In this document: positions 1,474 through 60,829 of the stretch, piece by piece
Position numbering within the stretch: position 1 is the stretch's first letter
How the letters are laid out: each line of letters begins with the position of its first letter
NCBI GenBank assembly: GCA_017459895.1
Contig: JAFUCA010000006.1
Coordinates: 248,001 to 312,000, forward strand
Length of the DNA stretch: 64,000 nt
Origin: Bacillota bacterium
Lineage (GTDB): Bacteria; Bacillota; Clostridia; Peptostreptococcales; Anaerovoracaceae
Direction of reading: 5' to 3'
The notes under the pieces: generated by a model
Seen by the model: only the letters and a program-made list of their open reading frames with translations
Database searches by the model: none
Told to the model about the DNA's origin: nothing
Position numbers and translations under genes: made by a program

Positions 1474-1491
1474 GCAAAGGCTGGAGTTGTG

Positions 1492-1741
1492 TTGCAGATT
1501 GATCGAGGGTTAGGGAAGAATCTGCAAATAACCGGCTGCAAGCCATTGATTTTAGAGACGGATAGAGCTGAAATTGCAGATTTGATATCCGTATATCCGA
1601 ATCTGCAACAAAGGAGCATGAATGATTGCAGATTTAACAGTAACGAATTCGAATCTGCAATTCAGCCATAAATTATCCCTGATCAGAGGCTTTACGGAGG
1701 TCGGGATTGCAGATTTGATGTATCTTAATTCAGATCTGCAA
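1492..1741. repeat. Inverted half-site array A (TTGCAGATT / AATCTGCAA)
   Basis: Eight 9-bp half-sites in alternating orientation fill this gap. TTGCAGATT starts at 1492, 1574, 1626 and 1707; AATCTGCAA starts at 1519, 1600 and 1652, with GATCTGCAA at 1733. Start-to-start steps are 27, 55, 26, 26, 26, 55 and 26 bp, so sites follow a period of about 26 bp with two steps doubled. The arrangement is symmetric about position 1617. The DNA between the half-sites is AT-rich and not repeated. Exact copies of the scattered 11-bp word flank it at 1474 and 1768. I see no gene in 1474-1862. Confidence 0.9.
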
Positions 1742-1786
1742 CAGAGCAATACCGGAAGAGCTCTGGGCCAGCCTTTGCATGGCCTC

Positions 1787-1815
1787 TTGTGAAAAGCCGC
1801 AGGCGGGTGTAGAAT
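1787..1815 (+). promoter_or_regulatory. Promoter of the mrp operon
   Basis: TTGTGA at 1787-1792, a 17-bp spacer and TAGAAT at 1810-1815 form a good vegetative promoter about 47 bp before the Mrp start codon. It lies just downstream of array A and of the 11-bp word at 1768. Confidence 0.6.
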
Positions 1816-1862
1816 GATGGGGCGGCGGGGCCGCAATATGCATAAAGGACGAGGTAAGAAAT

Positions 1863-2750
1863 ATGTTTGACAACTTAAAAAAACTTCAGGCGGACGGCGC
1901 GCAGGGCGGCGAACCGGTGACGGACCAGAACTGTACACATAACTGCAGCAGCTGTCCCAGCGCGGGGGGCTGCGGCAGCTTTGATCCGAAGAGCCTGCTG
2001 GCGGAGTCCAACGAATTCAGCAATGTCAAGAAGGTCATCGCGGTGGTCAGTGGCAAGGGCGGCGTCGGCAAATCCCTGGTGACATCCCTGATGACCATCA
2101 GCATGCAGCGGCGCGGCGCGGTCTGCGGCATCATGGACGCGGACGTGACCGGCCCGTCGATCCCGAAGGTGTTCGGCGTGAATGAGAAGGCCGAGGGCAG
2201 TGACGCAGGAATTTTCCCGCTGCTGACATCCACCGGCATCAAGACCATATCCGTCAACAACCTGCTGGAAAACGACAGCGATCCGGTGCTCTGGAGGGGA
2301 CCGATCATCGCGGGTCTGGTCAAGCAGTTCTGGACGGATGTGATGTGGGGCGAGACGGACTACCTGTTCGTCGATATGCCGCCGGGGACCGGAGATGTGG
2401 CGCTGACCGTATTCCAGTCCCTTCCGATCGATGGCATCATCGTGGTCACATCCCCGCAGGATCTGGTCAGCATGATTGTGGAGAAGGCGGTCAAGATGGC
2501 GGAGATGATGGACGTTCCGGTGCTGGGCCTGGTAGAAAACATGGCGTATCTGGAGTGCCCGCACTGCGGCGAGGAGATCCCGGTATTCGGACAGAGCCGG
2601 ACGGCGGAGGTTGCCGAAGCTCACGGACTGGAAGTGCTGGGCCGCATCCCCATCGACCCGAAGCTGGCAGCCGCCTGCGACCGGGGACTGATCGAAACAT
2701 TTGAAGGCGACTGGCTGGAAAAGGCCGTCGAGAAAGTGGAGGCATTATAA
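1863..2750 (+). CDS. mrp: Mrp/NBP35-type iron-sulfur carrier ATPase
   Basis: A 295-residue P-loop ATPase of the Mrp/ApbC/NBP35 family, which carries and transfers iron-sulfur clusters in the cytosol. The deviant Walker A GKGGVGKS is at about 64-71, followed by the DADVTGPS and DMPPGTGD motifs of the family. Four Cys residues precede it (24, 28, 31, 37), as in NBP35-like members, and the CPHC pair at 232-235 is the bridging cluster site. The start has a GACGAGGTAAG site upstream. The stop codon overlaps the start of the flavin reductase by one base. The pairing with a flavoprotein and a Cys-rich protein suggests a redox or cluster-maturation operon. Confidence 0.92.
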   Translation: MFDNLKKLQADGAQGGEPVTDQNCTHNCSSCPSAGGCGSFDPKSLLAESNEFSNVKKVIAVVSGKGGVGKSLVTSLMTISMQRRGAVCGIMDADVTGPSIPKVFGVNEKAEGSDAGIFPLLTSTGIKTISVNNLLENDSDPVLWRGPIIAGLVKQFWTDVMWGETDYLFVDMPPGTGDVALTVFQSLPIDGIIVVTSPQDLVSMIVEKAVKMAEMMDVPVLGLVENMAYLECPHCGEEIPVFGQSRTAEVAEAHGLEVLGRIPIDPKLAAACDRGLIETFEGDWLEKAVEKVEAL

Positions 2751-3310
2751 TGAGAAAGAATTTCGGATCCGATTCCTACCTGTACCCGATGCCGGTGCTG
2801 ATCATCGCAGCTTACGGCGAAAACGACGTGCCCAGCGTCATGAACGCGGCCTGGGGCGGCATCTGCGGCAATGGCAAGATCATGATGTGCGTTTCTCCGG
2901 GGCACCGGACGGTGCTGGACCTGCGGGCGCGCAGAGCTTTCACGGTCAGTGTCGGTGATGTGAAGAATGAAGTGGCCTGCGACTACGTCGGCATCGTTTC
3001 CGGCAATGACGTTCCGGACAAGTTCGCAAAGGCTGGCTTTACACCGGTTAAATCCGAGTTTGTGGACGCGCCGCTGATCGCGGAGCTTCCCATGGCGCTG
3101 GACTGCAAGGTCGAGAGCTACGATGAGGACAGCCACATCCTGATCGGTGAGATCGTCAATGTGAACGCGGACGAATCCGTGCTGAACGAGGAAGGCGCGA
3201 TCGACCCGGCGAAGGTGCAGCCCATCACCTATGACCCGGTGGGCCATACCTATATCGCCCTGGGGGAAGTTGTCGGCCAGGCATTCGCGGACGGAACGAA
3301 GATCGGATGA
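2750..3310 (+). CDS. Flavin reductase-like, FMN-binding split-barrel protein
   Basis: A 186-residue protein of the flavin reductase family (FMN-binding split barrel), predicted to bind FMN noncovalently and act in electron transfer in the cytosol. The N-terminal pattern YPMPVLIIAAYGENDVPSVMNAAWGG is typical of clostridial members, and the rest matches the barrel with a LRARRAFTVSV segment. It directly abuts mrp. An exact GCAAAGGCTGG copy lies inside at 3026 and is read as the peptide FAKAG. The physiological partner is not evident; the small Cys-rich protein downstream is a candidate. Confidence 0.88.
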   Translation: MRKNFGSDSYLYPMPVLIIAAYGENDVPSVMNAAWGGICGNGKIMMCVSPGHRTVLDLRARRAFTVSVGDVKNEVACDYVGIVSGNDVPDKFAKAGFTPVKSEFVDAPLIAELPMALDCKVESYDEDSHILIGEIVNVNADESVLNEEGAIDPAKVQPITYDPVGHTYIALGEVVGQAFADGTKIG

Positions 3311-3604: not shown

Positions 3605-4356
3605 ATGAAGAAATACAGACTGATGCTGGCCGCTGTGCTGACCAGCCTTTGCATGGTGATGGTCTGGGGAGCGGATCCGGTGCAGGCGGCACAGACCTTC
3701 TCCGCTTACGATTTCAACGCGGACACCGGAGTGCTGACGGTCCATTCGTCGGTTCCGGACGAAGCCGTGTGGGACCTGGACGACAACTCGGTAAAAGAGA
3801 TCATCTTCGAAGACGGAGTCAAAACCATCGGCAAGGATGCCTGCGGAAGCAGCGTCTTCGGTAAGCTCGCGAAGATGACATTCGCGCCTTCGGTGAGGGA
3901 GATCGGGGATCGCGCCTTCACGACCTACGGCAATCCGCCGAAGCAAGAGATCGTGTTCAGTGAAGGTCTGGAGAAGATCGGGGAATATGCGTTTTCGGCG
4001 GCACGGTGACATTCAAGGCTGCCGGTAAGGTCACCATCACTGCAGTATTCGAAAGCGGTGTGCGCATCAGTCAGGACTTTACCGTTAAGGGCGCAGCGAA
4101 GAAGGTGGCAGTTAAATCCGTGAAGCTTTCGAAGAAAAAGCTGACCATGAAGAAGGGAAAGAAGAAGACCCTGAAGGCGACGGTCAGCCCGTCGAATGCT
4201 GCGAATAAGGCGGTCACCTGGAAGTCCAGCAACAAGAAGGTGGCGACGGTCACCTCGAAGGGTGTCGTCAAGGCGAAGAAAAAGGGCAAGGCGACCATCA
4301 CGGTGACAACAAAGGATGGCAAGAAAAAAGCAACCTGCAAGATCACGGTGAAGTGA
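3605..4356 (+). pseudogene. Broken LRR / Ig-like secreted surface protein
   Basis: The first part (3605-4009, 134 codons) encodes a signal peptide ending near VQAA and a BspA-like leucine-rich-repeat start (VKEIIFEDGVKTIGKDAC and similar). It hits a stop at 4007-4009. The second part (about 3991-4356) is read in another frame and encodes a Lys-rich bacterial Ig-like (Big_2) domain, with PSNAANKAVTWKSSNKKVATV as its hallmark, then a stop. A secreted LRR-Big_2 protein normally runs through in one frame and is longer. The simplest reading is an out-of-frame internal deletion joining the two ends near 3995-4005. A signal-peptide copy of the 11-bp word is at 3642. Translation of the second part from GTG at 4006 is possible but would lack a signal peptide. 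Confidence 0.75.
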
Positions 4357-4875: not shown

Positions 4876-5657
4876 AACGTTATCCCTCCGATCAGCGACC
4901 AGAGTTTCAGGACCAGACCGGCGCCGGCTGCCAGGGAAACGGCCGTCAGCACCGCCTCCACCATGCGGGTCAGACCGGCCAGCATGTCACCGGACAGAAA
5001 ATCCCGGATGGAGTTGGTGATGGCAACCCCCGGGACGAACAGCATGATCGTTCCGCTGATGATCGGCCCGTAGCTGGCCCCCTTCAGAGAGGCGGCGATG
5101 ACCAGCGCGATGAACGCCGCCAGCGCGCAGCAGCACATCCCCCGGATAAAAAAGTTGATTTCATATTTCTCCAGGAACCGGGACAGCGTATAGCAGATCG
5201 TTCCGGTGATAAACGCACAGCAGAAATCAATGGCATTTCCCCCGAACATCACCGCGAAACAGGCCGCGACAACGGAAGCCGCGGTAACGCGGACCATGAA
5301 GTGATAGCGCTTTTCCCGCTCGATCTCGTCCAGCCTTTGCATGCCGGCCTCAAGAGACAGATCGGTAGCTGTGAACTCCCGGGAGAACTGATTGACCAGC
5401 GAGATCTTGTGCAGATCCGTCTCCCCGCTGCGGATGCGGCGGATGTAGGTCGAGACGCTGTCCGTTGACAGGTCGTTATCCAGAGTCACGAAAATACCCG
5501 TCGGCATCGCGAAAACCTCGACGTTATCGACGCCGCAGGCCTTGCAGATGCGGACGATGGTATCCTCGACCCGGTAAATCTCCGCGCCGCTTTTCATCAT
5601 GATCTCCCCCGCGCGCACCGCCAGGTGGAGAATGTCTTTTTTTCGTGCTGTATCCAT
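4872..5657 (-). CDS. ThrE-type exporter, large subunit (DUF1212)
   Basis: A 261-residue protein. A soluble N-terminal part of about 115 residues (motif GAEIYRVEDTIVRICKACG) is followed by about five membrane helices with a PGVAITNSIRDFLSGD loop. This is the DUF1212/ThrE N-terminal half of a threonine/serine exporter. The start is supported by an AAAGG site and a strong promoter upstream. It is co-transcribed with the small subunit gene. A copy of the 11-bp word at 5330 is read here as MQRLD. Substrate assignment rests on family knowledge only. Confidence 0.87.
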   Translation of the reverse strand: MDTARKKDILHLAVRAGEIMMKSGAEIYRVEDTIVRICKACGVDNVEVFAMPTGIFVTLDNDLSTDSVSTYIRRIRSGETDLHKISLVNQFSREFTATDLSLEAGMQRLDEIEREKRYHFMVRVTAASVVAACFAVMFGGNAIDFCCAFITGTICYTLSRFLEKYEINFFIRGMCCCALAAFIALVIAASLKGASYGPIISGTIMLFVPGVAITNSIRDFLSGDMLAGLTRMVEAVLTAVSLAAGAGLVLKLWSLIGGITL

Positions 5658-5718: not shown

Positions 5719-5754
5719 CAGAGAAAATGAGCCGCAGCACACTTTTGTATGACA

Positions 5755-5760
5755 TATAAT
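5755..5760 (+). promoter_or_regulatory. Candidate -10 box of the pilus operon
   Basis: A perfect TATAAT lies 24 bp before the first adhesin start codon. No convincing -35 box is seen 16-18 bp upstream (GC-rich CCGCAG region), so this promoter probably depends on an activator or another sigma factor. The assignment is tentative. Confidence 0.45.
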
Positions 5761-5784: not shown

Positions 5785-8700
5785 ATGGGAGCGGAGAGAA
5801 AGATCAGATGGTGCAAAGGCTGGAGATCCCTGGCGGTGATATGTCTGGCGGTCATCCTGCTGGCGGGGGCAGCCGCGGAGAATGTGCAGGCGGCGACCTA
5901 TTCCTTCAAGTCGACGACGATCTACGCGGACGGAACCAGGACAGCGAAGTTCACCTGCAACGGAATGACCGGACTTTGCTGCAAGGCGGGAGCCTACAGC
6001 ACCTACAGCGGGACGGCCAGTCTGAGCCGGCTCAAAAACACGTCGAATGCTGCGTACTGTGCCTATTACTACGGATACTGCAAAGGCTGGACCAGCGGAT
6101 CGAATGCGCACAAGCTGGCCAGACTGCTGTCTTACTGCATGGGGAACGGAACCGGCGGAGACTATAAGGCATCGACCATGAAGTCCCTGCTGAAGACGGC
6201 GAAGAAACAGAGCGTGCCGTCGGGATTTGAGTGCTGGCTCTGCAAGCCGAAGGGCAGCAGCAAGCAGGACTTCATCGTGTGGAAATACCCCCGAGGGAAG
6301 CTGAAGGTGGTCAAGAAATCCGCCGACACCTCGATTTCGGGCAAGGGAACCTACACGCTGGCGGGAATCACGATCCGGGTCTACAGCGATGCCGCCTGCA
6401 AGACCTGTGTGAAGACGCTGACCACGAAGAAGGACGGAACGACCGGCGGGGCATTCAGCCTTCCGGTGGGGACCTATTACGTGAAGGAGACAAAAGTCCC
6501 CGAGTCCACCGGTTTCCTGCTGAATAGCAAGGTGCAGAAGGTGAGCGTTTCCTCCGGCAAGACCGCCTCCGTTACGGTGACGAACAAGCCGGACACCGGG
6601 AAGCTGACGGTGCGAAAGCATACCGCCGGGGAGGGCGGATCGGTTCAGGGGTTCCGTTTTCGCCTGATCGGAATGACCTCCGGGAAACAGTATACCCTGA
6701 CCACCGGGGCGGACGGAACGGCAGCCATCGCCGGTCTGCCCTTCGGCAGATACCGCCTGGCTGAGGAACTGACCGCTGAGCAGCAGAAGTATTACACCGA
6801 CCGGACGGGACCGCAGACGATCACCATCGCCAAGGGCAGCAAGACGCAGAACATCACGGTTCAGCGTGAGAACAGCTACGAAGCGGAGCAGCGTCTGAAG
6901 ATCCTGAAGCGGACGGAAGACGGAGGAGACGTCAGCGGATTCTCGTTTCTGGTCAGCTGGCTTCTGGACAACAGCGAGAAGATATCAGCGGAGGACATCG
7001 TGATCGGGGCGGACCCGCAGGTGGAGCTGGGAGAGCAGCAGACCCTGGGACTGTGGCAGCTGGAGGACGCGGAGGTGATCGATCGGATCAACGAAGCCGC
7101 CGCAGCGGGAGAGACCGGCGTATTTGAGGTCGTCCTGAAGAATACCGTGACGACGCGGCCGGGCGAAACGGAAGAACCGGCCCAGAGCGAAGAACCCGCC
7201 CAGGGAGAAGAACCGGCTCAGCGCGAAGAGCCGGAAGGCCCGGAAGAAGGCGCCGGGCCGGAGGCCGGAAGCTCCGAAGCATTTCCCGGAACGGTCGTTG
7301 CCGCCGGTACCGGAGATGAGGAAACCATCAGCCGGCCGATTCGCTGCAGTGTTGCGGTGGAGCTGACGGCCGCGGGCAGCGCTGCGAAGGAGGAAGCCGG
7401 AGGAGACCGCCTGCCCAGCCGTGTGCAGCAGGTGAGCAGCCAGGAGGGAGATTCTTCGGTGCGCTTTTGGAATCTGCGCTTCGCAGGTGCGGCGGACCGG
7501 GGAGAGGAGACGGTCCAGACCGACGAGAGCGGGCAATATGTCATGAATCACGTGGCCCCGGGGGAATATACCGTGGCGGAGCAGATGAGCGACCGGCAGA
7601 AACAGCGGTATCGCCAGCCCCAGGTACAGAAAAAAACCGTCCCGGCAGGAGGGGATGAGATGATCGTGTTTTCGTTTATCAACGAGCCGATCCTGATCCC
7701 GGTCCGGCTGCAGAAGGAATCCGCCGACGGGCAGATCGAGAATATTGAATTCACACTGACCGGAACGCCGGACTACCTGCAGGAGCCGATGGAGGAGCGG
7801 ATCGTTCCTACGGATGAGAACGGGATCGCGGATTTCGGGTCGCTGTACCCGGGAACCTATCACATTGCCGAAAGCGGTTTCGATGGGACCGGATACAGCA
7901 ATGCCTATCCGGAGGAGGAAGGAGATGTTCCGGGATTCAGTTTCACGATTACCGGAGAGGAGCTGACGCCGGAGGAGATCGAGAGCGGCGAGAGCCTGTG
8001 GCTGGGAGGAGATCCCGGCAAAGGCACGGTCTCGAGGGAGAAGATCCCGTTTCGGAACATCCCCTATGTGGATCTGCTGCTGACCAAGGTAGATGGCATC
8101 ACCGGATCGTTCCTTCCGGGGGCGGAATTCCTTCTGGAGGACAGCGCGGGAGCTCTCGCCGCGCGGTTTCGCATCGATGAAGGAGAGAATGGAGAGCCGG
8201 AGGTGATTATGCAGGAGACGGACGGCATTGTGACGGGAGAATACTCCGGAGAAACGGCCGAAGAAGAGGGGGCATCGCCGGTGATCATCGGCGGAGCCGC
8301 CGCGGCGGAGGATCCGGAGGAGGATAAGAAACAGCCCGCCTATGCCTGCGCGCGGCTGCGGGGATTAAAGGAAGGGGAGATCTATACGCTGACGGAAACA
8401 AAGGCACCGGAAGGATTCACCCCGCTGACGGAGCCCTGCCGGTTCGCTGTTGCGCTGACGGAGAGCGGGGAGACCGAGCTTCGCACCTGTGACGAATACG
8501 GTGAGCGCATCGCCGGAGATGAAGCGGGAGGAATGCTGGTGATCGTCAATGACGGTCCGTCGATCGGAACCGTCTGTCTCGATGACGCGACGGGGGAGCA
8601 CACGGCGAAGGCTTCCGGGCAGGTGCAGCTGACGGATACCTGTACCGTGACCAACCTGACGGAAGGAGAAACCTATACGCTGATCGCGCATCTGATGGAC

Positions 8701-9122: not shown

Positions 9123-9905
9123 ATGATGAAACACAGGGGGAGACGGAAGCGCAGGAAGTGTCCGGCGCACAGCATGCTGTGTCTGCTGCTGCTCGCCGGT
9201 CTGATCGGCGCGGCACCAGCCTTTGCAGAAGATGCGGAGGAGAACGGACCGGTGATGGAGGTGATCGTCGGCGAAAACGGAGCGGTGGACGGACACCGGG
9301 AAGACTATACCGAGAGGATGGCCCCGGGGGAGGATATTACACTGCAGCTGCAGGGGGACGATGGATTTGTGATCGGCGAAGTCCGGATCAATGATGTCCC
9401 GCTGGAGGAGGAAGATCTGGAGGGAATTGCCGGAGAACGATCCGCCGGTCTGTGGCTGGAGGGGATCGACAGCAGCCTGCGGGTCGAGGTGTCCTTCGAG
9501 CAGGATGAGACAGGAGGCGATGAGGGAGATGTTACAGAATCCGCGGATGTACCGGCGGCAGCTGAGACTGCAGAGGACGGCGACGCACCGGAGGAGCCGG
9601 AGAAGGGACCGGCAGAAGCAGAGCCGGTAGGAACGGAGGAACCGGCCTCAGAGGAGAAGACTACTGGAGAGGAGAACACCGCCGCTGAGGAAACCCCCGG
9701 GCAGACCCCGGAGCAGGGAAGCGGCGAAGCGGAAGAAGCGTCCGAGGAACCGGAAGAGCTTTCCCAGGCGGCTGCAGATGACAGCCCGAAGACAGGGGAT
9801 CCGCTTTCGGTAATCGCCGTGCAGCTGTTCCTTGCGAGCGCGACGATGATCGGAATCATTGCCGCCGCCGGTCTGCGGAGAAAACACAGGAGGATCCGGT
9901 CATGA
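9123..9905 (+). CDS. Small acidic cell-wall-anchored protein (SPKTGD signal)
   Basis: A 260-residue secreted protein with a basic N terminus, a signal peptide ending near APAFA, and a folded part of about 100 residues. A long Glu/Ala/Pro linker (about 140-220) follows, and the C-terminal sorting signal is SPKTGD, a hydrophobic helix and RRKHRR. I recognise no domain in the folded part. The linker is typical of a wall-spanning stalk. It lies 17 bp after the adhesin gene and overlaps the next gene by four bases. The 11-bp word at 9216 codes the signal-peptide cleavage region (APAFA). Confidence 0.8.
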   Translation: MMKHRGRRKRRKCPAHSMLCLLLLAGLIGAAPAFAEDAEENGPVMEVIVGENGAVDGHREDYTERMAPGEDITLQLQGDDGFVIGEVRINDVPLEEEDLEGIAGERSAGLWLEGIDSSLRVEVSFEQDETGGDEGDVTESADVPAAAETAEDGDAPEEPEKGPAEAEPVGTEEPASEEKTTGEENTAAEETPGQTPEQGSGEAEEASEEPEELSQAAADDSPKTGDPLSVIAVQLFLASATMIGIIAAAGLRRKHRRIRS

Positions 9906-11050
9906 GAAGCATGCAAAGGCTGGTCCTGCTGGCCCTGATCCTTGCTCTGGCAGCGGGATTTGCCCCGGGGAGCGTGTCGGCTCTGTCCGTTCCGAAGATC
10001 CAGCCGGATCGGCAGGTTCTGACGAAGGAAAGCGGCAGTGACGCCGTCATCACCGGAACGGTTTCCATCGCACAGGGTCAGAAGATCGTCGCCTGCGCTT
10101 CCGATGGAACCACGGTGCTGGCACAGACCTCTGCCGGAAGCAGCGGCCGCCGGGAAAGCTTTCGCCTGCAGATCCCGGCAAGCCGCCTGGCAAGCGAGGG
10201 AAGCACCGATGTCTTCGTGCAGAGCCGTGCGGCCCTGGGACTTGCCGCATCCGAGCGGGTGCGGGTGAGCATCATCAGCAGAAAACCGAAGAAGGCCCAG
10301 GGACTCAAGGCGCCGTCAAAGAAGATCGTTCTGACGAATCTTAAAACGACGGCGAAGATCAAGGCAAGCTCATCCTCGGGACAGAAGATCCTGTTTCAGA
10401 GCAGCCGGCCGAAGGTCGTGTCGGTTACGGCAGACGGGACGCTGAAGAGAAAAAAGAACGGAACGGTGACGATCACGATCAGTCAGAAGGAGACCGGCGT
10501 CTATCTGGCGGAGAAAAAGACAGTCACCGTCGTCAGCCGGAAGAGTACGAGAACGGAGCAGATCGATGCCGCGGTTCAATGGGCTCTCCGGATTGCCGCA
10601 GACAATTCCTTCGCCTACGGAACCGGCCGCAACGCGCATCACAACGGCTGCTATTTCTGCGGGACCAACTACGGACCGCGAAAATATATGAAGCCGAGCC
10701 GGAGGTACAAAAAAACATACTGCTGCAATCCCTTCATCCACGCGGCGTACGCCCACGGAGCGCAGCATCCGAAGATGCTTGCCGCCTGCCGCAGAGGTGC
10801 CGCCATCGGAATGGAGAAAAAGACCTATCGGGGATTCGGATGCTGGAAATGCGTCGGCAAGCCGGCGTACAGGAAGCTCCAGAAGGGAGATGTGCTCGTG
10901 AAACACGATCATGTCGCGATGTACATAGGGAAGCAGCGGATGGTGGAAGCTTCCGGAGGAAACTGGTCCGCGTCCTCCATTTCGGCGCATCACATGAGCA
11001 AAAAGGATTACAGGAAGTTTTCGTTCGTCATGAGATACACAGGGTATTAA
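9902..11050 (+). CDS. Secreted NlpC/P60-like hydrolase with Ig-like domain
   Basis: A 382-residue exported protein. It has a signal peptide (1-28, ending VSALS), a domain of about 100 residues, a Big_2-like Ig domain (about 135-215), and a C-terminal cysteine-peptidase-like domain (about 220-382). Candidate catalytic elements are the CCNPFIHAAYAHG segment (Cys nucleophile) and DHVAMYIG (His). This is the pattern of NlpC/P60 or CHAP-type peptidoglycan hydrolases. Its place inside the pilus operon suggests local opening of the wall for pilus passage, which is inference. The start overlaps the stop of the preceding gene. No sorting signal is present. An 11-bp word copy at 9913 is read as MQRLV. 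Confidence 0.82.
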   Translation: MRSMQRLVLLALILALAAGFAPGSVSALSVPKIQPDRQVLTKESGSDAVITGTVSIAQGQKIVACASDGTTVLAQTSAGSSGRRESFRLQIPASRLASEGSTDVFVQSRAALGLAASERVRVSIISRKPKKAQGLKAPSKKIVLTNLKTTAKIKASSSSGQKILFQSSRPKVVSVTADGTLKRKKNGTVTITISQKETGVYLAEKKTVTVVSRKSTRTEQIDAAVQWALRIAADNSFAYGTGRNAHHNGCYFCGTNYGPRKYMKPSRRYKKTYCCNPFIHAAYAHGAQHPKMLAACRRGAAIGMEKKTYRGFGCWKCVGKPAYRKLQKGDVLVKHDHVAMYIGKQRMVEASGGNWSASSISAHHMSKKDYRKFSFVMRYTGY

Positions 11051-17200: not shown

Positions 17201-18430
17201 TATATTGCCTCCTATCACGTCACGAAAGCGGCAGGAACCATTCCGGCGGAGGAGAAGGCAAACGCGAAGTCCGATCTGAGCCTTCGCACAGAGCAGAACA
17301 CCATGCCGGGGCCGGAGGCGGATGCCGAAGTGGAATTCGCGTTTGAAAACAACGCTGATGAAGATCCGGATGGAAACACGCTGTATGTACAGAAGGAAAT
17401 CAATACCGATGAAACAAGCCGGACGTTCAGTTTTACCGCGGACTACCGCGGCCTGAAGGCAAACACGTACTACTGCTATCTGAAGGAAGGCACTTCCGTC
17501 TATACCCTGACGGCGGCGCTGACCGGAGCCAGCGTGAAGAACCAGGCTTCGGCAGGCACTGCCGGTGTACCGATCAAAATCACCCGGGCGGATGGGAAGG
17601 CGAAGTATCTGCGAACCGGCGCGGATGGCGCCGTCAGCTTCTCCCGGAGCTGGATCGCCCGGGGCGGGGAAGGCAGTGTGATCGTTTCCTGGATCGGAGA
17701 GGACGTTTCTCTGAACTATGAAGAGGAGGCGGCGGAGGCTGTGACGGCAGCCGCCAGCGCCGAAGGCTTCGATCTGGTCTCCTTTCAGGCGGACGCCGGT
17801 GGACATGCCGCCCCAGCCTTTGCGCTGAAAGCTCATGAGCAGATCGCATTCCCGATGCTCCCGGCGGGAGCCGCGTACAAGGTCACGGAGGCTGCGAATT
17901 CCTATGAGCCTTCCTATGAGCTCTACCGGACAGCGGAGGGCGAAATGAAAAAGCTGGACGCAGGCAGCGGCGGAACCAGGTCGGCCCTTGCGACAGAGGA
18001 GAAGGCGATCCCCGGCGGCGTGGATGTTACGGACAACGTGTGTTTCACAAACACGGCCGACACGAAGCGGCTGAAGGTCACCAAGACGGTTTCCGACGGA
18101 GCGGCCATAACGTTCCCCTTCACCGCAGCCTTCTCCGGCCTTTCCCGGACGAAGTATATCGCGGTGACAAAGGGAACCGGATCCGCGAGGATCTCCATCG
18201 CACAGGACGGGGCAATCACTGTGACCATTACAGGCTCTGCAGCCTTTGGAGGAGACTGTTCCGGGATCCCGATCAAATTCATCCGGGGAGACGGCGCGGC
18301 GAGAACCGTGTATACGGACGCCTCCGGAAAGGTCGCTGCCGGCGCGTATATCGACTGGCTGACCGGATATGAGGACAGCCGTGATTACAGGCTGGAGTTT
18401 CTGGGACAGGTATTCGAGGAAACGTGGTAG
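14198..18430 (+). CDS. Giant adhesin: small pilin fused to thioester-type adhesin
   Basis: A 1410-residue protein. Residues 1-196 look like a complete small basal pilin: signal peptide 1-32, one FctB-like Ig domain, then ATGD (167-170), a hydrophobic helix (172-193) and RRR. At about 205-230 a second signal peptide follows in the same frame (MVWAVLAAVMV to PAFG). Then comes an adhesin with a candidate thioester domain (Cys290 in NAYCLEPP; candidate Gln in HTQIGV) and several repeated Ig-like domains with TKSFG/KTV-type starts and YKVTEAA ends. It stops at FEETW with no sorting signal. GTG codons at 14804 and 14816 and an ATG at 14819 could give a separate adhesin start, so it may be expressed as two proteins. 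Confidence 0.8.
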   Translation: MTGQNRHGFHQRIAAAALVISLMICVQPALAAEKDANHMPVTSEIVLKLACTGDIPKADPDTFVLEAGSEATPMPEGAGNGIRKITVDTAGEASFGTITYERPDVYEYTVKRARKDAEDIAKDYQVYRVKVIALNSGEVRQIITKAGGTRKSELVYTDSVAIPVSAATGDAFSPILFGMLCAGSLAVILFLLVRRRAAGAGKVKQRVMVWAVLAAVMVSIGLYPAAPAFGKTLKVTLHRGGVCKTCGKKIGDERSSWGVITYGGPGATSYRWVSYTDPLTGKKETANAYCLEPPKQSPAEKQYSAEYINPNSATGKWKSIAKVLYFADDGPGGSELKAYLKKNRSKYPDMQSAKQRFALMHELLSYAYDSSMAFRTTEGRTLDASYQKKVKAIYKWCISHTQIGVPDPGFSVSPASAKAEYDPAKKAYVSETQEVKGSSTRQYFKYKVPAKAAMVVTHKGKTREYQAGATASVYVGDTFWFRFDASRTSGIAKTTVEGEEMQVMPYKISIGGRQDMGFYVNDKEASAAFSVALKTADSGTIKIRKQTESLSGETAPESDVQFRIWNASYSSYEEAAAASGGNRNCADTVVTDTDGIAISRKVAVGTYYVRQMTTKTGYRMMDPNPKTVTVTKDQTALVDGGSITDTEMGIRLRILKLDGITGEPITESPAIFGVYGEEACADGDLICTMTTATAGENAGAAISDPLPPGTVYVKELQAPDTYVRAKETKKIKLSYSAENRIEDGGEVEYVREEEIENWRPQFHDVVINKTVAQGEMSRDFAFDIAISSFDAADNVTVTRSLPGGEQTNVPLAMDGGKAAAENILIRAGGQIVLHHLPVGAKYTITERAAAGYKPSFRAVPEDSVQISSNMGLAGEPLSVTNKIKMETEEEMENVRIIYNWNNTREVSHALVVTKKSFGIGKNETDRFDFKATFTDLGGVVPGYVIYAQDENGNLAEEFSAAPQETGDTAALLEFSLAAGEKIRFFHILPEAKYVIVEEASDYIASYHVTKAAGTIPAEEKANAKSDLSLRTEQNTMPGPEADAEVEFAFENNADEDPDGNTLYVQKEINTDETSRTFSFTADYRGLKANTYYCYLKEGTSVYTLTAALTGASVKNQASAGTAGVPIKITRADGKAKYLRTGADGAVSFSRSWIARGGEGSVIVSWIGEDVSLNYEEEAAEAVTAAASAEGFDLVSFQADAGGHAAPAFALKAHEQIAFPMLPAGAAYKVTEAANSYEPSYELYRTAEGEMKKLDAGSGGTRSALATEEKAIPGGVDVTDNVCFTNTADTKRLKVTKTVSDGAAITFPFTAAFSGLSRTKYIAVTKGTGSARISIAQDGAITVTITGSAAFGGDCSGIPIKFIRGDGAARTVYTDASGKVAAGAYIDWLTGYEDSRDYRLEFLGQVFEETW

Positions 18431-24325: not shown

Positions 24326-24611
24326 ATTGATCGGGCAGCGCAGCCAGCTCCTCCCGGATGGCCAGCCTTTGCGCGTTCGTGGAGAGATCGTCAAACATCA
24401 CCATCAGGGTGCTGGCGTCCTCGCGGCCGAATTCCGCTTCCATCAGATCAAGCCCGCGGCGCATATCGGAGTCTGCGGGCAGGTATTTGGTCATGTCCTT
24501 GTTGATGTTGACGAAGGGGATCAGGGCGCTGCAGGCAAGGGCAAGAACGATGAATATGATCAGGATGATCCTGTTGTATGCGACGAGAAACGAAGCAAAA
24601 CGTTCTTTCAT
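24300..24611 (-). pseudogene. N-terminal stump of an RND/MMPL-family transporter
   Basis: The first roughly 95 codons encode an RND/MMPL exporter start: MKERF, one membrane helix (about 12-32), then a periplasmic stretch with DMTKYLPADSDMRRGLDLMEAEFG. These proteins are usually 700 residues or longer with twelve helices. Here the reading frame runs into array B and stops after 103 codons. The last homologous residues are near EELAALP, and the 3' remainder is gone. I see no rest of the gene elsewhere in the window. Confidence 0.75.
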
Positions 24612-41017: not shown

Positions 41018-42929
41018 GTGACACCCATCTCCTTTCGAGTATGATCGCGGACAGCGGCGGCAGATTCAGCCGCAGGTACTGCTCCTGCCCGTGGCACTGC
41101 CCGGTATAGACTCTGTATTGTTTCTTCCGGCGCTTTCCGGACCCGCCGAAGCGCTTCATGTCCGTATCCAGCACCCGTTCATAGTGATCGGCCTCCGGTA
41201 CGCCGATGTGCACATCCCGCCATTCCTGCCCGGACAGGTTCAGTATGCAAAGGCTGGTCTGTCCGTCTGCGCCGGTGCGCAGGTAGGAATAGATATTGCG
41301 GTCCATGTCATCGGCATCGATCCAGGTGAATCCGTCCCAGGTGTTGTCCTGAGACCACAGCGCGGGACTCTTCAGATAGAGCTGATTCAGCTCCGCTACG
41401 AATCCCTGCATCCGGCGATGCTTGTCGTAATCCAGCAGGAGCCAGTCCAGCTCCTGTTTCTCGTTCCATTCGATGAACTGACCGAACTCGCAGCCCATGA
41501 ACAGGAGCTTCTTGCCCGGATGGCTCATCATATACACATAAAAGGCCCGCAGACCCGCGAATTTCTGATCGTAGTCCCCCGGCATCTTGTCCAGCAGGGA
41601 GAGCTTACCGTGGACGACCTCGTCGTGGGAGATCGGCAGGACAAAGTTCTCGCTCCAGGCATAGGTGATGGAGAAGGTCAGCTTGTGATGCACGCCCCGG
41701 CGGTAAATCGGATCCGTGTGGAAATACTCCAGACAGTCGTTCATCCAGCCCATGTTCCACTTGAAATTAAAGCCCAGTCCGCCCTTGGACGGGGGCATGG
41801 TGATCATGGGCCAGGCAGTGGACTCCTCGGCGAACATCAGCACTCCGGGGAACTCGGTGAGGATCGACTTGTTTAGCTCCTGCAGGAAGCTGACCGCCTC
41901 CAGGTTCTCCCGGCCGCCGTTTCGGTTCGGCCGCCACTGCCCGTCCTCCCGGCAGTAATCCAGATAGAGCATGGCCGATACCGCGTCCACCCGCAGACCG
42001 TCCGCGTGGTAGACATCGCAGAAGAAGGCGGCGCTGGACAGCAGGAAGCTGCGGACTTCGCTGCGCCCAAAGTCAAAGGCGCAGGTGCCCCAGCCTTTGT
42101 GCTCCCGGCGCAGCGGGTCCGGATCTTCATAGAGGAAGTCTCCGTCGAAGCTGACCAGACCGTAGGCGTCCTTGGGGAAATGGGCGGGGACCCAGTCCAG
42201 AAGAACCCCCAGCCCTGCCTGGTGGGCTTTGTTCACGAAATATTTGAAGTCGGCGGGATCGCCGTAGCGGCTCGTCACGGCGAAATAACCGGTGCTCTGA
42301 TAGCCCCAGGATCCGTCGAAGGGGTACTCCATGACGGGCAGAAGCTCCAGATGGGTGTAGCCCATCTTCTTCGCGTAGGGGATCAGGGTGTCGGCGCTTT
42401 CCCGGTAGGTGAAGTAGCTGCCGTCCGCATGCCGCCGCCAGGAACCGAGGTGAACCTCATAGATGTTCATCGGCGCCGTGTAGGGGTTGGCCCGCCGTCG
42501 CTCTTCGAGCCAGGCGTCATCCTTCCAGGGGAAATCCTCCGCAAGGCACACCAGACGGGATGCCATCTGGCGGATCTGATCCTCCCGGGGCTGCTCCGCG
42601 GAGAAGCCGTAGGGATCGGCCTTGTAGATCACCTTGCCGGCGCGGGTTTTGATCGCGTATTTATAGCAGTCTCCGGCCCGGGCGGAGGGGCACACCGCCT
42701 CCCAGATCTCAGGGTCGTCCTCCAGCCTTTGCATGGGGGAAGCCGAAGCGTCCCAGCCGTTGAAGTCGCCGGCCACCGAGACGGCCCGGGCACCCGGAGC
42801 CCACACCCGGAAGCAGAATCCGTCCGTTTCACCCAAAGGCCGGGCGCCGAGGAACTCGTAGGCCCGGGTCCCCTTGCCCTGATGGAACAGGTATTTCGCG
42901 TAAGAAATGTCGTTTTGCGTTTCCGCCAT
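41010..42929 (-). CDS. glgB: 1,4-alpha-glucan branching enzyme
   Basis: A 639-residue GH13 branching enzyme that forms alpha-1,6 links in glycogen. A CBM48-like N-terminal domain (about 15-110) is followed by the barrel with [23 protein letters not shown] (nucleophile Asp), FAEESTAWP (Glu) and [15 protein letters not shown]. It lacks the second N-terminal domain of enterobacterial GlgB, as usual for short Gram-positive forms. Exact copies of the 11-bp word at 41247 and 42722 are read as TSLCI and MQRLE. It is the first gene of the minus-strand glycogen operon, divergent from glgA. Confidence 0.97.
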
Positions 42930-55685: not shown

Positions 55686-57202
55686 AGATCAGGGGAACGG
55701 ATAACGTCGCGGTGGCGCTGGAGGCGCTTTGCCCCGGGGAGACAGTGAGGGCCGGGGACGTAGAGGCCGCGGTCAGAGAGGCAGTGCCGGCCGGACATAA
55801 GCTCGCCCTGCAGAGGATCGAAGCAGGAGAAGATGTCATCAAGTACGGATATCCCATCGGGCGTGCTGTGCAGGTCATAGAGGCCGGGGAGCACGTCCAT
55901 ACCCACAATCTGAAGACGAATCTGGAGGGCCTGCTGGAGTATGCGTATCATCCCCGGGCAGCCGAGGAGCAAAGGCTGGAGGGGCCTGCATTAAATCGCA
56001 GGGCCGCCGCGCAGACGGAAGCGACCTTCGAAGGTTACCGGCGTTCGGACGGCCGGGCCGGGATCCGCAACGAGATCTGGATCATTCCCACCGTGGGCTG
56101 CGTGGGGCATACGGCGCAGCTGCTGGCAGCCGAAGGAGAGCGCAGGTTCAAAGGCCGTGTTGACGGGATCCATGCTTTCCTTCATCCCATGGGATGCAGT
56201 CAGCTGGCGGAGGATCATCTGCGGACGCAGAAGATCCTGGCAGGCCTGGCCCATCATCCCAATGCCGGTGGTGTGCTGGTGGTGAGCCTGGGCTGTGAGA
56301 ATAACAACCTGGAGGTATTCCGTCCGTTCCTGGAGGATATCGACGAACGGCGGATCCGGTATCTCGTCACACAGAACGCAGAAGATGAGATCGAAGAGGG
56401 AATGAAGCTGCTGGATGAACTGACGGCGGCAGCGGCAGCCGACCGCAGGGAGCCGGTGCCGGTAAGCGCACTGACCATCGGTTTCAAATGCGGCGGCTCC
56501 GATGGATTCTCCGGGATCACGGCCAATCCGCTGTGCGGGAGCATCAGCGACTGGATCTGCAGCCAGGGGGGCAGAGCGATCCTCACGGAAGTTCCGGAGA
56601 TGTTCGGCGCGGAGCAGATCCTGATGGATCGGGCCTGCAGTGAAGAGGTGTTTCGGCAGTCGGTAGACCTGATCAATGGGTTCAAATCGTATTTTCGCCG
56701 GTACGGGCAGGAGATCTACGAGAATCCTTCGCCGGGAAACAAAGCCGGGGGAATCACGACGCTGGAAGAGAAGTCTCTGGGGTGTGTGCAGAAGGGCGGC
56801 AGGGGCCCGGTATGCGGCGTGCTGGATTACGGACAGGCACCGGCGCGGGCCGGTCTGCATCTGCTGAACGGACCGGGCAATGATCTGGTCTCCTGTACGG
56901 ACCTGACGGCCAGCGGCGCGCAGATGGTTTTGTTTACCACAGGGAGAGGCAACCCCTTCGGTGCACCTGCCCCAACGGTGAAGATCGCCTCCAATGGAGC
57001 GCTGGCCCGAAGGAAACCGGGCTGGATCGACTTCAATGCCGGGCAGGTCATCGAAGGGGCTGCGGGCTTCGGCGGGTTCGACGCTGCGGAGCAGGAACTG
57101 AGACAGCTCATTCTCGATGTCGCTTCCGGAAGGACATTCACAAAGAACGAAAAAAACGGCTATCGTGAGATAGCCGTGATGAAAGACGGTGTCATCCTCT
57201 GA
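55658..57202 (+). CDS. uxaA: Altronate dehydratase
   Basis: A 514-residue Fe-dependent dehydratase turning D-altronate into 2-keto-3-deoxygluconate. An N-terminal SAF domain (about 5-95, ending HVHTHNLKT) is joined by a linker to the large catalytic domain, with GYRRSDGRAGIRNEIWIIPTVGC, GFKCGGSDGFSGITANP and TGRGNPFGAPAPTVKIASN motifs. The linker holds an exact copy of the 11-bp word (55969, read as EQRLE). Its final codons contain the terminator of the convergent regulator gene. It is co-translated with uxaB and has the same regulator. Confidence 0.95.
   Translation: MGDQRSKIIKIRGTDNVAVALEALCPGETVRAGDVEAAVREAVPAGHKLALQRIEAGEDVIKYGYPIGRAVQVIEAGEHVHTHNLKTNLEGLLEYAYHPRAAEEQRLEGPALNRRAAAQTEATFEGYRRSDGRAGIRNEIWIIPTVGCVGHTAQLLAAEGERRFKGRVDGIHAFLHPMGCSQLAEDHLRTQKILAGLAHHPNAGGVLVVSLGCENNNLEVFRPFLEDIDERRIRYLVTQNAEDEIEEGMKLLDELTAAAAADRREPVPVSALTIGFKCGGSDGFSGITANPLCGSISDWICSQGGRAILTEVPEMFGAEQILMDRACSEEVFRQSVDLINGFKSYFRRYGQEIYENPSPGNKAGGITTLEEKSLGCVQKGGRGPVCGVLDYGQAPARAGLHLLNGPGNDLVSCTDLTASGAQMVLFTTGRGNPFGAPAPTVKIASNGALARRKPGWIDFNAGQVIEGAAGFGGFDAAEQELRQLILDVASGRTFTKNEKNGYREIAVMKDGVIL
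57150..57177 (-). terminator. Terminator of the LacI-2 operon, inside the end of uxaA
   Basis: Read on the minus strand, ACGGCTATC (57177-57169) pairs with GATAGCCGT (57164-57156) across a 4-base loop, followed by a run of seven T. It lies within the last 20 codons of uxaA on the other strand, so it terminates the convergent iolO-lacI transcript. The poly-A side means it is not a terminator for uxaA. Confidence 0.82.
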
Positions 57203-57217
57203 AACGCCGGGACTGCT

Positions 57218-59132: not shown

Positions 59133-59147
59133 TTTTCTCCTCCAAAT

Positions 59148-59345
59148 AAAAACGTTTTTCGATATAGAAGTTGATGTTGCGAAAGTTCAGAAAAATTATT
59201 ACAAATCAAATATAACTGATAAACGTTGAAAAATCAAGGATTATTTTACATTAAAACGGGATTTTTGATTGGAAGCTCTGGAAAAAGGTATTGACATGAT
59301 GACGCAAACTTGTTAAACTTCATGCAACAACAGAAAAACGTTTCG
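59148..59345. promoter_or_regulatory. Divergent control region with AAACGTTT operators and iolN promoter
   Basis: The 281-bp gap between the isomerase and the IolN homologue has no gene. It holds the perfect palindrome AAAAACGTTTTT (59148-59159), a half-matching AAACGTTG (59221-59228) and GAAAAACGTTTCGC (59333-59346). The plus-strand promoter is TTGACA (59291-59296), a 17-bp spacer and TAAACT (59314-59319), with the last operator just downstream of it. A TATATC -10-like box for the minus strand lies near 59160-59165 beside the first operator. LacI-2 is the likely ligand. Confidence 0.72.
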
Positions 59346-59413
59346 CTAAACCAACCACAATAATGATCATTATCAAATCGTTTACACGCAGATGAAAAAG
59401 GGAGGTAGCCTAT

Positions 59414-60547
59414 ATGAAGCTCACATTAAACGAATCGGGTAAGACATGGCTCACGACGGAAGATCCGGCGATCCTGTTTGAGGACAACGAAGTCGGCAGA
59501 CTGAAGAAGGAAGTCTGGGACATGACAGAAGAAGAACTGGACAAGGTTCTGGAGGAGTACGGAGTTCCCTCCGCGTCCGAACTGGGTGTTGCAGGAACCT
59601 ACATTCAGAATACAGCCAGAGGAGATCAGATCGAGAAGCGCCGCAAGGATGACATCGTATTCGTCCCCATCGGATGCACCGAGAACCATGGACTGCATAA
59701 CAACACCGGACTGGACACGTTCATGTGTACTCAGATCTGTGAGGCGGTTCGCCGCTACACAGCCAAGCAGGGACATGAAGTCAACCTGGCCTTCACACCG
59801 CTGAACTATGGCGGACATCCGTACCATCACATCGGCATGCCGGGAACGGTCATCATGCCGCAGGAAGTGGTCACAGAGATGCTGATCTACACCATGCTGG
59901 GTCTGTGGGATGACGGATACCGCAAGATCATCTTCATCAACAACCACGGTCATCTGTGGATGCTGGAAGCAGCCATTCAGGAATTCTGCAAGAGATACCA
60001 GCTGCCGGGCATTTACAGGGTCATCGACTGGCACCGGGCGGTCAGAGAGTTCTTCTATCCCACCGATGTGCATGACGATTCCCTGGAGACCCACTTCATC
60101 CACGCGGACGAAGCAGAGACAGCAGTAGCGCTGCTGATGTTCAAGGATATGGTCAACATGGACTATGTACAGGATAAGCTGGGTGAAGCCCTGCTGCCGG
60201 ACGGACACATCGATAAGTCCGTGGATCCGTACAGAAGACCGTGCCGCTGGAGCGAGGGCGAAGGTCATGCAGCCATCGAACGTTCTGCGACACCGGAAGG
60301 CATCGTCGGCGTCCCTTCCCAGGCGACAGCCCGTAAGGCCAAGAGACCCATCGTCGCGATCCTGAAGTATCTGACACTGCTGCACGATCAGATTCTGGAG
60401 GCGTATCCGGCAGGAACCGTTCCGCCAGTGGAGAAGGTGTCGCTGCGTTCCGCGGAGGAACTGGCGCCGTTCCTGAAGGAGCCGCTCAGCGAAGGCTGGA
60501 AGTCCGTGGCGGAGCTGCCGAGAGTCGGATATTTCGAGAAGCTGTAA
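59414..60547 (+). CDS. Creatininase-family hydrolase, candidate IolN
   Basis: A 377-residue metal-dependent amidohydrolase-like protein of the creatininase family. It shows VFVPIGCTENHGLHNNTGLDTFM, YGGHPYHHIGMPGTV, INNHGH and FIHADEAETAVALL motifs, including the Glu, His and Asp metal ligands. In the alternative inositol pathway described in Thermotoga, IolN of this family hydrolyses 3-dehydro-scyllo-inosose to 5-keto-L-gluconate. The zinc dehydrogenase two genes downstream (candidate IolM) and the epimerase across the promoter (candidate IolO) support that reading. AGGGAGG precedes the start. Confidence 0.85.
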   Translation: MKLTLNESGKTWLTTEDPAILFEDNEVGRLKKEVWDMTEEELDKVLEEYGVPSASELGVAGTYIQNTARGDQIEKRRKDDIVFVPIGCTENHGLHNNTGLDTFMCTQICEAVRRYTAKQGHEVNLAFTPLNYGGHPYHHIGMPGTVIMPQEVVTEMLIYTMLGLWDDGYRKIIFINNHGHLWMLEAAIQEFCKRYQLPGIYRVIDWHRAVREFFYPTDVHDDSLETHFIHADEAETAVALLMFKDMVNMDYVQDKLGEALLPDGHIDKSVDPYRRPCRWSEGEGHAAIERSATPEGIVGVPSQATARKAKRPIVAILKYLTLLHDQILEAYPAGTVPPVEKVSLRSAEELAPFLKEPLSEGWKSVAELPRVGYFEKL

Positions 60548-60553
60548 GAAACG

Positions 60554-60829
60554 ATGAAAAGATATCTTGAGAAAATTTCATCTCTGCTTACGAAATCTGT
60601 ACCGGAAGTATACAATGATACATATCTGCAGGCAGAAGGGCTGCGCGTCGTTCGCGGCAAGGTGCAGGGTGAGCAAAGGCTGATCGTAGACGGGGCAAGA
60701 TCCTTTCGGTACGAAGGCGAAGAGGTGGGAGGCCGCAGCGGCATCCGCATCTGCCCGATAAACCAGGTCAATCTGAACCGGCTGCAGCTGGATTTCCCGC
60801 AGAGCCAGCCTTTGCAGGAACAGAAATAA
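60554..60829 (+). CDS. Small hypothetical protein between the iolN- and iolM-like genes
   Basis: A 91-residue open frame starting 6 bp after the IolN-like gene, with only a weak ribosome site (GTAAGAAACG). I do not recognise it. The N terminus looks amphipathic, the middle is basic, and there is no signal peptide. It contains one exact (60805, read as SQPLQ) and one variant (60673) copy of the scattered 11-bp word within 140 bp, the densest spot in the window. It could be a small real protein or a decayed segment. Confidence 0.4.
   Translation: MKRYLEKISSLLTKSVPEVYNDTYLQAEGLRVVRGKVQGEQRLIVDGARSFRYEGEEVGGRSGIRICPINQVNLNRLQLDFPQSQPLQEQK

What the first reader, a model, noticed from the sequence alone, without database searches (positions are those of the whole stretch)
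1474..60815. A hugely over-represented 11-bp word, GCAAAGGCTGG, scattered like a DNA uptake-type signal
Seen directly: 21 exact copies (9 in one orientation, 12 in the other) and about 23 one-mismatch copies in 64 kb, against about 0.03 exact expected. Inside genes it is read in all six frames (CKGW, AKAG, QRL, PAFA, SLC, QPL), so protein sequence cannot drive it. It falls in unrelated genes (glgB, iolD, uxaA, thrE, pyk, pilus proteins) and in gaps. Most copies extend to TGCAAAGGCTGG. Known DNA-level words of this size and density are the uptake sequences of Neisseria and Pasteurellaceae; I know of none in Bacillota. Other readings are a recombination or segregation signal, or the footprint of a tiny mobile element.
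Basis: partly seen in the sequence, partly recalled or inferred. Interest (0 to 1): 0.88.

Follow-up and report, generated by a model that had tools for sequence, protein, structure and literature searches.

The report
Gut-Clostridia DNA self-recognition word with dialects
A short DNA word is repeated about six hundred times in this uncultured gut bacterium, with different spellings in related species, and it looks like the labels that a few unrelated bacteria use to recognise and take up their own DNA, though uptake itself has not been tested here.

Summary
Confirmed, and larger than reported. GCAAAGGCTGG occurs 601 times (300/301 by strand) in the 2.5-Mb assembly; the backwards control occurs 3 times. 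Of 36 congeners three have 308-337 copies, one has 29, and 32 have 0-14. Many congeners carry variants of one core, GCAAARGC, with other spellings at the next bases: TGG here, AAC in G003, A/AGC in G020. The core exceeds 190 per Mb in 29 of 38 genus members seen and in 0 of 60 sampled members of other genera of the family. The word shows most published marks of DUS/USS uptake sequences: no strand bias, more perfect than one-off copies, protein-like base tolerance, a distal flanking base, retention at orthologous sites. ComEC, ComEA, DprA and a pilus cluster with PilT are present. Best reading: a DNA-uptake word with dialects in Bacillota, where my literature searches found none. Against it: uptake untested, no receptor, random spacing; word-free relatives have the machinery too, and some core-rich bins lack parts of it.

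The parts
1474..1484 (+). exact GCAAAGGCTGG copy, in a gap right after the DUF169 gene
1768..1778 (-). exact copy in a gap; retained at the orthologous site in G011
3026..3036 (+). exact copy in the flavin-reductase-like gene (peptide AKAG); retained in G011
3642..3652 (-). exact copy in a small LRR-like gene
5330..5340 (-). exact copy in gene 4872-5657 (MQRL); retained in G011, lost in G001
5813..5823 (+). exact copy in SpaA-type gene (CKGW); not retained in G011
6080..6090 (+). exact copy in the same SpaA-type gene; DNA retained in G011
9216..9226 (-). exact copy in gene 9123-9905; GCAAAGGCAGG in G011
9913..9923 (+). exact copy at the start of the NlpC/P60 ORF 9902-11050 (my gene caller missed that ORF and counted this copy as a gap copy)
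17813..17823 (-). exact copy in the large ORF 14198-18430 (PAFA)
24362..24372 (-). exact copy at the start of an EamA transporter gene; CCAAAGGCTGG in G011
26546..26556 (-). exact copy in a DeoR-type regulator gene; not retained in G011
28516..28526 (+). exact copy in pyruvate kinase (AKAG); retained in G001, not in G010
30737..30747 (-). exact copy in the isocitrate/isopropylmalate dehydrogenase gene; retained in G001, G010 and G011
34309..34319 (-). exact copy in the aconitase gene (PAFA); not retained in G010 or G001
38220..38230 (+). exact copy in an alpha-amylase-family gene, ungapped against relatives that lack the word there
41247..41257 (+). exact copy in the branching-enzyme-like gene 41010-42929; retained in G011
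42722..42732 (-). exact copy in the same gene; retained in G011
55969..55979 (+). exact copy in the galactarate/altronate dehydratase-family gene
60805..60815 (-). exact copy; gene call at this place uncertain (overlapping ORFs on both strands)

Best explanation
The word is the strong core of a DNA-uptake sequence: consensus T(-5)..TG-CAAARGC-TGG.....C(+15), counting the first C of CAAAGGC as 0. A surface DNA-binding protein of the competence pilus or its partners (a minor pilin or ComEA; not identified) is proposed to bind it, so that DNA of the same or a closely related species is drawn in by the PilT-driven pilus, passed to ComEA/ComEC and recombined into the chromosome with DprA. Repeated preferential uptake and recombination would enrich and maintain the word all over the genome. 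The spelling at +7 to +9 differs between species groups, giving dialects that would favour exchange inside a dialect group. Shown here: the word, its counts, its base tolerance profile, its flank, the dialects, symmetry, retention, and the machinery genes. Inferred: binding, uptake, drive and barrier to exchange.
For: Genome-wide enrichment, 601 against 3 for the control. Core with dialects in the genus; the three TGG genomes with a fetched PilT gene form one clade on a pilus-protein tree of 16 genomes. Core at least 190 per Mb in 29 of 38 genus members and at most 167 per Mb in 60 of 60 other-genus family members. No strand bias: leading strand 135 of 259 cores (P 0.53) and 68 of 142 exact copies; 303 comparably G-rich 7-mers average 0.64, 10-90% range 0.49-0.77. 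Perfect 9-mers outnumber one-off 9-mers, 259 to 220, ratio 1.18, highest of 300 permuted words 0.143, the mark described as shared by USS and DUS (PMC1626085, passages). Of 181 one-mismatch 11-mers (13.1 expected) 141 differ at -1, +4 or +9, and 3 at the five positions AAA, C+6 and G+8, as for a protein-read site. C at +15 in 146 and T at -5 in 114 of 259 copies; C+15 recurs in G011 (same dialect) and in G020, G008 and G004 (other dialects) at z 4.5-5.0. Retained at 10 of 21 aligned orthologous sites against 2.76 expected from local 11-mers. Gap copies 28 of 142 against 13.2% of DNA, P 0.019; 27 and P 0.032 if one copy my gene caller misplaced is moved. Open frames for ComEC, ComEA, DprA, a GspF/ComGB-like protein and PilT.
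Against: No uptake experiment and no receptor; 59 of 59 small pilus-protein sequences compared have pI 4.1-6.6, unlike the basic ComP I recall. The machine does not predict the word: ComEC, ComEA and DprA are common in families without it, and the pilus cluster is present in word-free G024 and G031. Conversely some bins with the word or a dense core lack parts: G010 has no ComEC match, nor do G032, G033 and G036; G011 has no ComEA match over the cut-off; G006 and G033 have no T2SSF match; G030 (98% complete) has only one weak T2SSF match. These bins are 71-98% complete, so absence is not proven. The own genome has no N_methyl pilin hit, and 3 of 23 genus members in that search do. Spacing is random (CV 0.98). 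Inverted partners are few, 5 of 28 gap copies. In one search, T-5 passes z 4 in no set but the own genome, C+15 in 4 of the 26 other sets (many small), and some unrelated flank positions pass z 4 as well. The retention sites are not fully independent. Known competent Bacillota take up DNA without sequence preference (general knowledge).
Confidence: 0.68

Rival explanations
1. A binding site of a cytoplasmic chromosome-organising protein (nucleoid, condensin loading, partition, replication or repair) that is non-polar and spread over the whole genome.
For: Protein-like base profile with a distal contact; spread over the sampled contigs; core-dense bins in which I found no ComGB-like protein (G006, G030, G033).
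Against: Known sites of this type are polar, clustered near origin or terminus, palindromic, or much rarer (recalled). The excess of perfect over mismatched copies is described in PMC1626085 as very different from regulatory-protein sites. Dialect change at three bases among congeners is not what I would expect of a housekeeping site.
Confidence: 0.15
2. A Chi-like recombination hotspot or an FtsK/KOPS-like polar guide.
For: Contains GGCTGG, faintly like the E. coli Chi octamer (recalled).
Against: No leading-strand bias: 135 of 259 cores and 68 of 142 exact copies, although GC skew flips sign within contig C34. The footprint reaches from -5 to +15, longer than any Chi I know. Presence of AddAB was not examined.
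Confidence: 0.05
3. A highly iterated word maintained by a DNA methyltransferase or repair bias, as discussed for HIP1 in cyanobacteria.
For: HIP1 shows that such abundance can exist in a lineage and is discussed with methyltransferases (PMC4390886, search listing with start of abstract only).
Against: HIP1 is a palindrome; this word is asymmetric, with a distal flank and dialects. Methylation was not examined.
Confidence: 0.06
4. Footprint of a tiny mobile or replicative element.
For: A high perfect-to-mismatch ratio is what a young repeat would show.
Against: Little shared sequence outside -5 to +16; at 5 of 12 in-gene sites with homologous hits all alignments are ungapped around the word, though 7 of 12 have a gap in at least one hit; distinct dialects in relatives.
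Confidence: 0.02

Closest known systems
Neisseriaceae DNA uptake sequence (DUS) and its eight dialects (PMC3630211; abstract part and passages seen)
   Same: Short asymmetric word at hundreds to thousands of copies, one dominant spelling per species, a core common to the dialects, dialect groups that agree with a phylogeny, competence pilus genes present.
   Different: Unrelated word; host is Bacillota, not a betaproteobacterium; distal flank at -5 and +15 (DUS is described as without flanking motifs, PMC1626085 passage); no ComP-like receptor found; few inverted pairs.
Pasteurellaceae uptake signal sequence (USS), Hin and Apl types (PMC1626085 and PMC7811141; passages seen)
   Same: Strong core, flanking contacts, perfect copies outnumber one-off copies, different spellings in subclades, copies in genes and gaps, no orientation bias.
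   Different: Unrelated word; flank is single bases (T-5, C+15/+16) rather than AT-rich tracts; random instead of somewhat regular spacing; no outer membrane to cross (general knowledge of Bacillota).
HIP1 (GCGATCGC) of cyanobacteria (PMC4390886, search listing)
   Same: Extremely abundant short word in a lineage.
   Different: HIP1 is palindromic; here asymmetric, with dialects and a distal flank.
Chi sites (recalled)
   Same: Abundant short asymmetric word.
   Different: No strand polarity here; longer footprint.

Membership tests
Uptake sequences (DUS/USS) | Highly over-represented word, near one copy per kb | tested here: met
   601 exact 11-mers in 2.496 Mb, 241 per Mb; CAAAGGCTG 259 in 464 kb, 558 per Mb. 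[quoted passage not shown]
Uptake sequences (DUS/USS) | No orientation bias | tested here: met
   300/301; leading strand 135 of 259, P 0.53.
Uptake sequences (DUS/USS) | More perfect than singly mismatched core copies | tested here: met
   259 against 220, ratio 1.18; 300 permuted words, maximum 0.143. Other dialects stay below 1: 0.69 in G003, 0.65 in G020, 0.40 in G008.
Uptake sequences (DUS/USS) | In genes and gaps, with preference for gaps | tested here: met
   28 of 142 in gaps against 13.2% of DNA, P 0.019, with my own simple gene calls; 27 and P 0.032 after moving one misplaced copy. A weak preference.
Uptake sequences (DUS/USS) | Arises by substitution, not insertion | tested here: inconclusive
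   16 in-gene sites of the window tried: 4 without homologous hits; of 12 with hits, 5 ungapped in every hit and 7 with a gap in at least one hit.
Uptake sequences (DUS/USS) | Somewhat more regular spacing than random | tested here: not met
   Spacing CV 0.98 for 142 copies.
Uptake sequences (DUS/USS) | Some copies in close oppositely oriented pairs, often terminators | tested here: inconclusive
   6 neighbouring pairs under 120 bases among 142 copies, 4 of them opposite; 5 of 28 gap copies with an inverted partner of 7+ bases.
Uptake sequences (DUS/USS) | Related words in relatives (dialects) | tested here: met
Uptake sequences (DUS/USS) | Competence machinery with type IV pilus | tested here: met
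   Own genome: ComEC, ComEA, DprA, PilT over curated cut-offs; GspF/ComGB-like protein over the Pfam T2SSF cut-off but under the NCBIfam GspF and ComGB cut-offs. No N_methyl hit.
Uptake sequences (DUS/USS) | Cells prefer DNA carrying the word; specific receptor | not testable with these tools
   needs culture and biochemistry
Chi sites | Leading-strand polarity | tested here: not met
   135 of 259, P 0.53.
HIP1-type palindromes | Palindromic word | tested here: not met
   GCAAAGGCTGG is not self-complementary; flank profile asymmetric.
Mobile repeat (REP/MITE) | Shared sequence well beyond the word | tested here: not met
   information 0.10 or less at every position outside -5 to +16, in 258 aligned copies over -20 to +33.

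The most novel reading that the evidence does not exclude
An independently evolved, sequence-specific DNA self-recognition system for natural transformation in an uncultured gut and rumen genus of Clostridia, with species dialects built on one core and a recognition footprint of about two helical turns, read by an unidentified component of a competence pilus in a cell without an outer membrane.
Probability: 0.62. Interest if true: 0.93.

Novelty: new variant of a known kind. Interest (0 to 1): 0.88.

Why it matters
[quoted passage not shown] A third, unrelated case in Bacillota would show that uptake sequences evolve repeatedly and do not need an outer membrane or secretin, would mark an uncultured gut genus as probably transformable, and would supply congeners with strong, weak and absent words in which the origin, drift and loss of uptake specificity can be compared directly. 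The word could also help genetic work on these bacteria once they are cultured.

Tried and rejected
Protein-driven origin: rejected, copies are read in all six frames and also lie in gaps. Mobile repeat: rejected, little shared flank. Polar Chi/KOPS-like guide: rejected on strand counts. Terminator role: weak, 5 of 28 gap copies with an inverted partner. Receptor by pilin charge: led nowhere, 59 of 59 sequences of the four small pilus proteins have pI 4.1-6.6, computed from residue 26 on. Linking the word to presence or absence of machinery: led nowhere; matches in ComEC 54 of 61, ComEA 59 of 61 (51 over the cut-off), T2SSF 55 of 61 and DprA 36 of 37 genomes, with and without the word. Canonical pilin signal PF07963: 15 of 37 genomes, not the own one. 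Not done: depletion in phages or islands, AddAB, methylation, structure prediction of pilus proteins (the tool's list of allowed sources did not clearly cover stretches taken with the fetch from genomes, so I did not send them). From genome sizes and named hits I guess order Peptostreptococcales, family Anaerovoracaceae; this is recall and inference, not a test.
Full report
Observation. The window holds 21 exact and 23 one-mismatch copies of GCAAAGGCTGG, against 1.34 expected for both classes together. The whole assembly, 2,495,951 bases in 55 contigs, holds 300 forward and 301 reverse copies; the same letters read backwards occur 1 and 2 times. In 464 kb (the window plus 400 kb of contigs C34 and C6) the top-ranking words at each length from 8 to 12 are pieces or extensions of it.

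Spread of the exact word. Of 36 congeners searched, G001, G010 and G011 have 311, 308 and 337 copies, G012 has 29, and the other 32 have 0 to 14; 24 genomes of other families of the order have 0 to 5. A scan of named genomes with the window's pyruvate kinase gave 42 loci; the 13 nearest (67-79% identity) are uncultured bins called Clostridiales, Firmicutes or Bacillota. G004 is RUG13204 (contig of 164,251 bases in both); G010 is very probably RGIG2569 from goat jejunum (a match ends at base 12,801, the length of that record's contig, and the aligned site patterns agree).

Dialects. Of those 13 nearest loci (4.7-21 kb each), L030, L033 and L041 carry the TGG word; RUG10876 and RGIG2549 use TGCAAAGGCA followed by GC, RGIG2468 uses GCAAAGGCAA(C), SIG265 TGCAAAAGCA and RUG13204 GCAAAAGCA; the other five are too short or unclear. 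In stretches of 20-140 kb of further congeners: G003 GCAAAGGCAAC(G); G008 TGCAAAGGCA; G020 TGCAAAGGCA and GCAAAGGCAGC; G007 CGCAAAGGCAA; G004 and G014 both GCAAAGGCA and GCAAAAGCA; G030 CGCAAAGGCCG; G013, G015, G018, G027 and G032 the core with looser ends; G022, G023, G024 and G031, with G+C of 41-44%, have no such word among their top words. Whole-genome counts of the 8-mer GCAAAGGC are at least 190 per Mb in 29 of 37 genus members; the eight below are G005, G009, G019, G022, G023, G024, G028 and G031, and a 38th member met later, G274, has 126 per Mb (genome sizes in the tables are rounded, G002 at 191 is borderline). In 247 genomes drawn from the order, the 60 members of other genera of the family reach at most 167 per Mb (G258: 318 copies, reversed control 263), and by my reading of the table the 180 members of other families reach about 106 per Mb; the genus is represented there by the own genome and six low members. 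On a tree of the pilus proteins ComGB and PilT from 16 genomes, the three TGG genomes G000, G001 and G011 form one clade (supports 0.994 and 1.000); G003, G013, G018, G020, G008, G007 and G004 are on one side of the next well-supported split; G016, G017 and G027 (core dense) group with G024, G031 and G034 (low or lower).

Anatomy. 258 aligned copies of CAAAGGCTG in the own genome show T at -5 (44%), T at -2 (66%), G at -1 (78%), G at +9 (69%), C at +15 (56%) and C at +16 (44%), with little beyond. C at +15 also passes z 4 in G011, which has the same dialect, and in G020, G008 and G004, which have others; it does not in the remaining 22 of 27 sets, many of them small; T at -5 passes in the own genome alone, and a few unrelated positions pass in single sets. 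-5, the middle of the core and +15 are about ten bases apart, as expected if one protein reads one face of the helix; this is inference. Copies that are not exact 11-mers show the distal C too (0.50 of 117, against 0.62 of 142 exact ones). Of 181 one-mismatch 11-mers (13.1 expected), 38 differ at -1, 44 at +4 (40 of them G to A) and 59 at +9, but 3 in all at the AAA, C+6 and G+8. Perfect 9-mers outnumber one-off 9-mers, 259 to 220, the mark described as shared by USS and DUS (PMC1626085, passages). The ratio stays below 1 in the other dialects (0.69 in G003, 0.65 in G020, 0.40 in G008).

Placement. 142 exact copies lie 67 on one strand and 75 on the other; 28 are in gaps by my own simple gene calls (19.7% against 13.2% of the DNA, P 0.019; one of them, at 9913, lies in an ORF that the caller missed, and 27 of 142 gives P 0.032); inside genes 63 read with and 51 against the gene; all six frames are used; spacing is random, CV 0.98. 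GC skew changes sign within C34 but the word does not follow: leading strand 135 of 259 cores; comparably G-rich 7-mers average 0.64, with a 10-90% range of 0.49-0.77 that includes the word's 0.52. At alignable orthologous sites of the window 7 of 12 copies are retained exactly in G011, 1 of 4 in G010 and 2 of 5 in G001, against 1.74, 0.56 and 0.46 expected from neighbouring 11-mers; pooled P is 0.00013 if sites were independent, which they are not fully. In different-dialect relatives none of the few aligned sites was kept (0 of 8 site comparisons in L036, L038, L031, L039 and L037, and 0 of 3 in G012). Inside genes, 12 of 16 sites tried have homologous hits; five are ungapped in every hit, for instance ITVFDPSYEDPDWI in a relative against ITAEEPAFADPDWI here, and seven have a gap in at least one hit.

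Machinery. The own genome has ComEC (TIGR00361 over its cut-off), ComEA (TIGR00426, E 4.8e-24), DprA (PF02481, E 1.4e-76) and, about 21 kb beyond the right end of the window on the same contig, a cluster of a GspF/ComGB-like protein (over the Pfam cut-off, under the NCBIfam ones), four small pilin-like membrane proteins (one with DUF4860) and PilT (TIGR01420 over its cut-off). Searching 18 loci from 17 genomes with these six proteins, the first small protein was found in all 17 genomes, the second in 14, the third in 16, the fourth in 12, in consistent order where found, including word-free G024 and G031. On the other side G010 (a TGG genome) and core-dense G032, G033 and G036 have no ComEC match, G011 no ComEA match over the cut-off, G006 and G033 no T2SSF match, and G030, 98% complete, one weak T2SSF match. 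Incomplete bins can explain this, but it is evidence that the pilus link is unproven.

Interpretation. Symmetric, dispersed, strongly consensual copies, base tolerance as for a protein-read site, dialects at a few bases beside a fixed core, retention at orthologous sites in same-dialect relatives and a competence apparatus are what is described for uptake sequences in Neisseriaceae (PMC3630211, passages) and Pasteurellaceae (PMC1626085, passages). PMC1939737 (passages) argues from lack of orientation bias and of palindromes that such words are not replication or termination signals; the same argument applies here. [quoted passage not shown] Two surveys of words in terminators report uptake words in those families (PMC13020248, passages; PMC1852404, passages, which included 7 Clostridia); both looked inside terminators, where this word is rarely paired. 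Searches for a case in Firmicutes, Bacillota or Clostridia (one search returned 8,949 papers of which I saw ten) showed none; they cover the open-licence library only, and I read passages of eight papers, no whole text. I therefore file it as a new variant of a known kind: it looks like an uptake sequence, and membership is unproven until uptake is shown.

Noticed in passing
window 46915-64000: The sugar-acid/inositol region has almost no match in G001, G010 and G011 yet carries three exact copies, so either it is missing from incomplete bins or words build up in accessory DNA too.
   Followed up: partly
window 5749-18430: Cluster with SpaA, TQ and Sortase domains; only one exact copy lies between 9,924 and 24,361.
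   Followed up: partly
congener samples G030 (L121-L125) and G032 (L126-L130): A second enriched relative of the core: GCAAAATCC in G030 (13 against 1.05 expected in 100 kb) and GCAAAACCC in G032 (8 against 0.37).
   Followed up: no
congener sample G022 (L106-L110): Faint variant GCAAAGGGC, 8 against 0.47 expected in 84 kb, in a genome otherwise low in the core.
   Followed up: no
congener sample G018 (L116-L120): Another repeated word, AACGTGAAGTC, 7 against 0.04 expected in 100 kb, perhaps a small repeat family.
   Followed up: no
G012 loci (L196, L200, L203, L207, L210, L213, L217, L221) and L035: Repeated words AAAGTTGGA and ATATTCCAA, 13 and 10 counts in 32 kb (overlapping loci can count a copy twice), also in L035.
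   Followed up: no
congener sample G024 (L111-L115): GGGAGCAC 14 against 1.21 expected in 93 kb in a word-free congener.
   Followed up: no
G000:C1:21418-22942 (L175): A second pair of T2SSF proteins in the own genome, single-domain and so probably Tad-like.
   Followed up: no
L173:12936-13415: One of the small pilus proteins starts with a hydrophobic stretch and a glutamate like a prepilin, but gave no N_methyl hit.
   Followed up: partly
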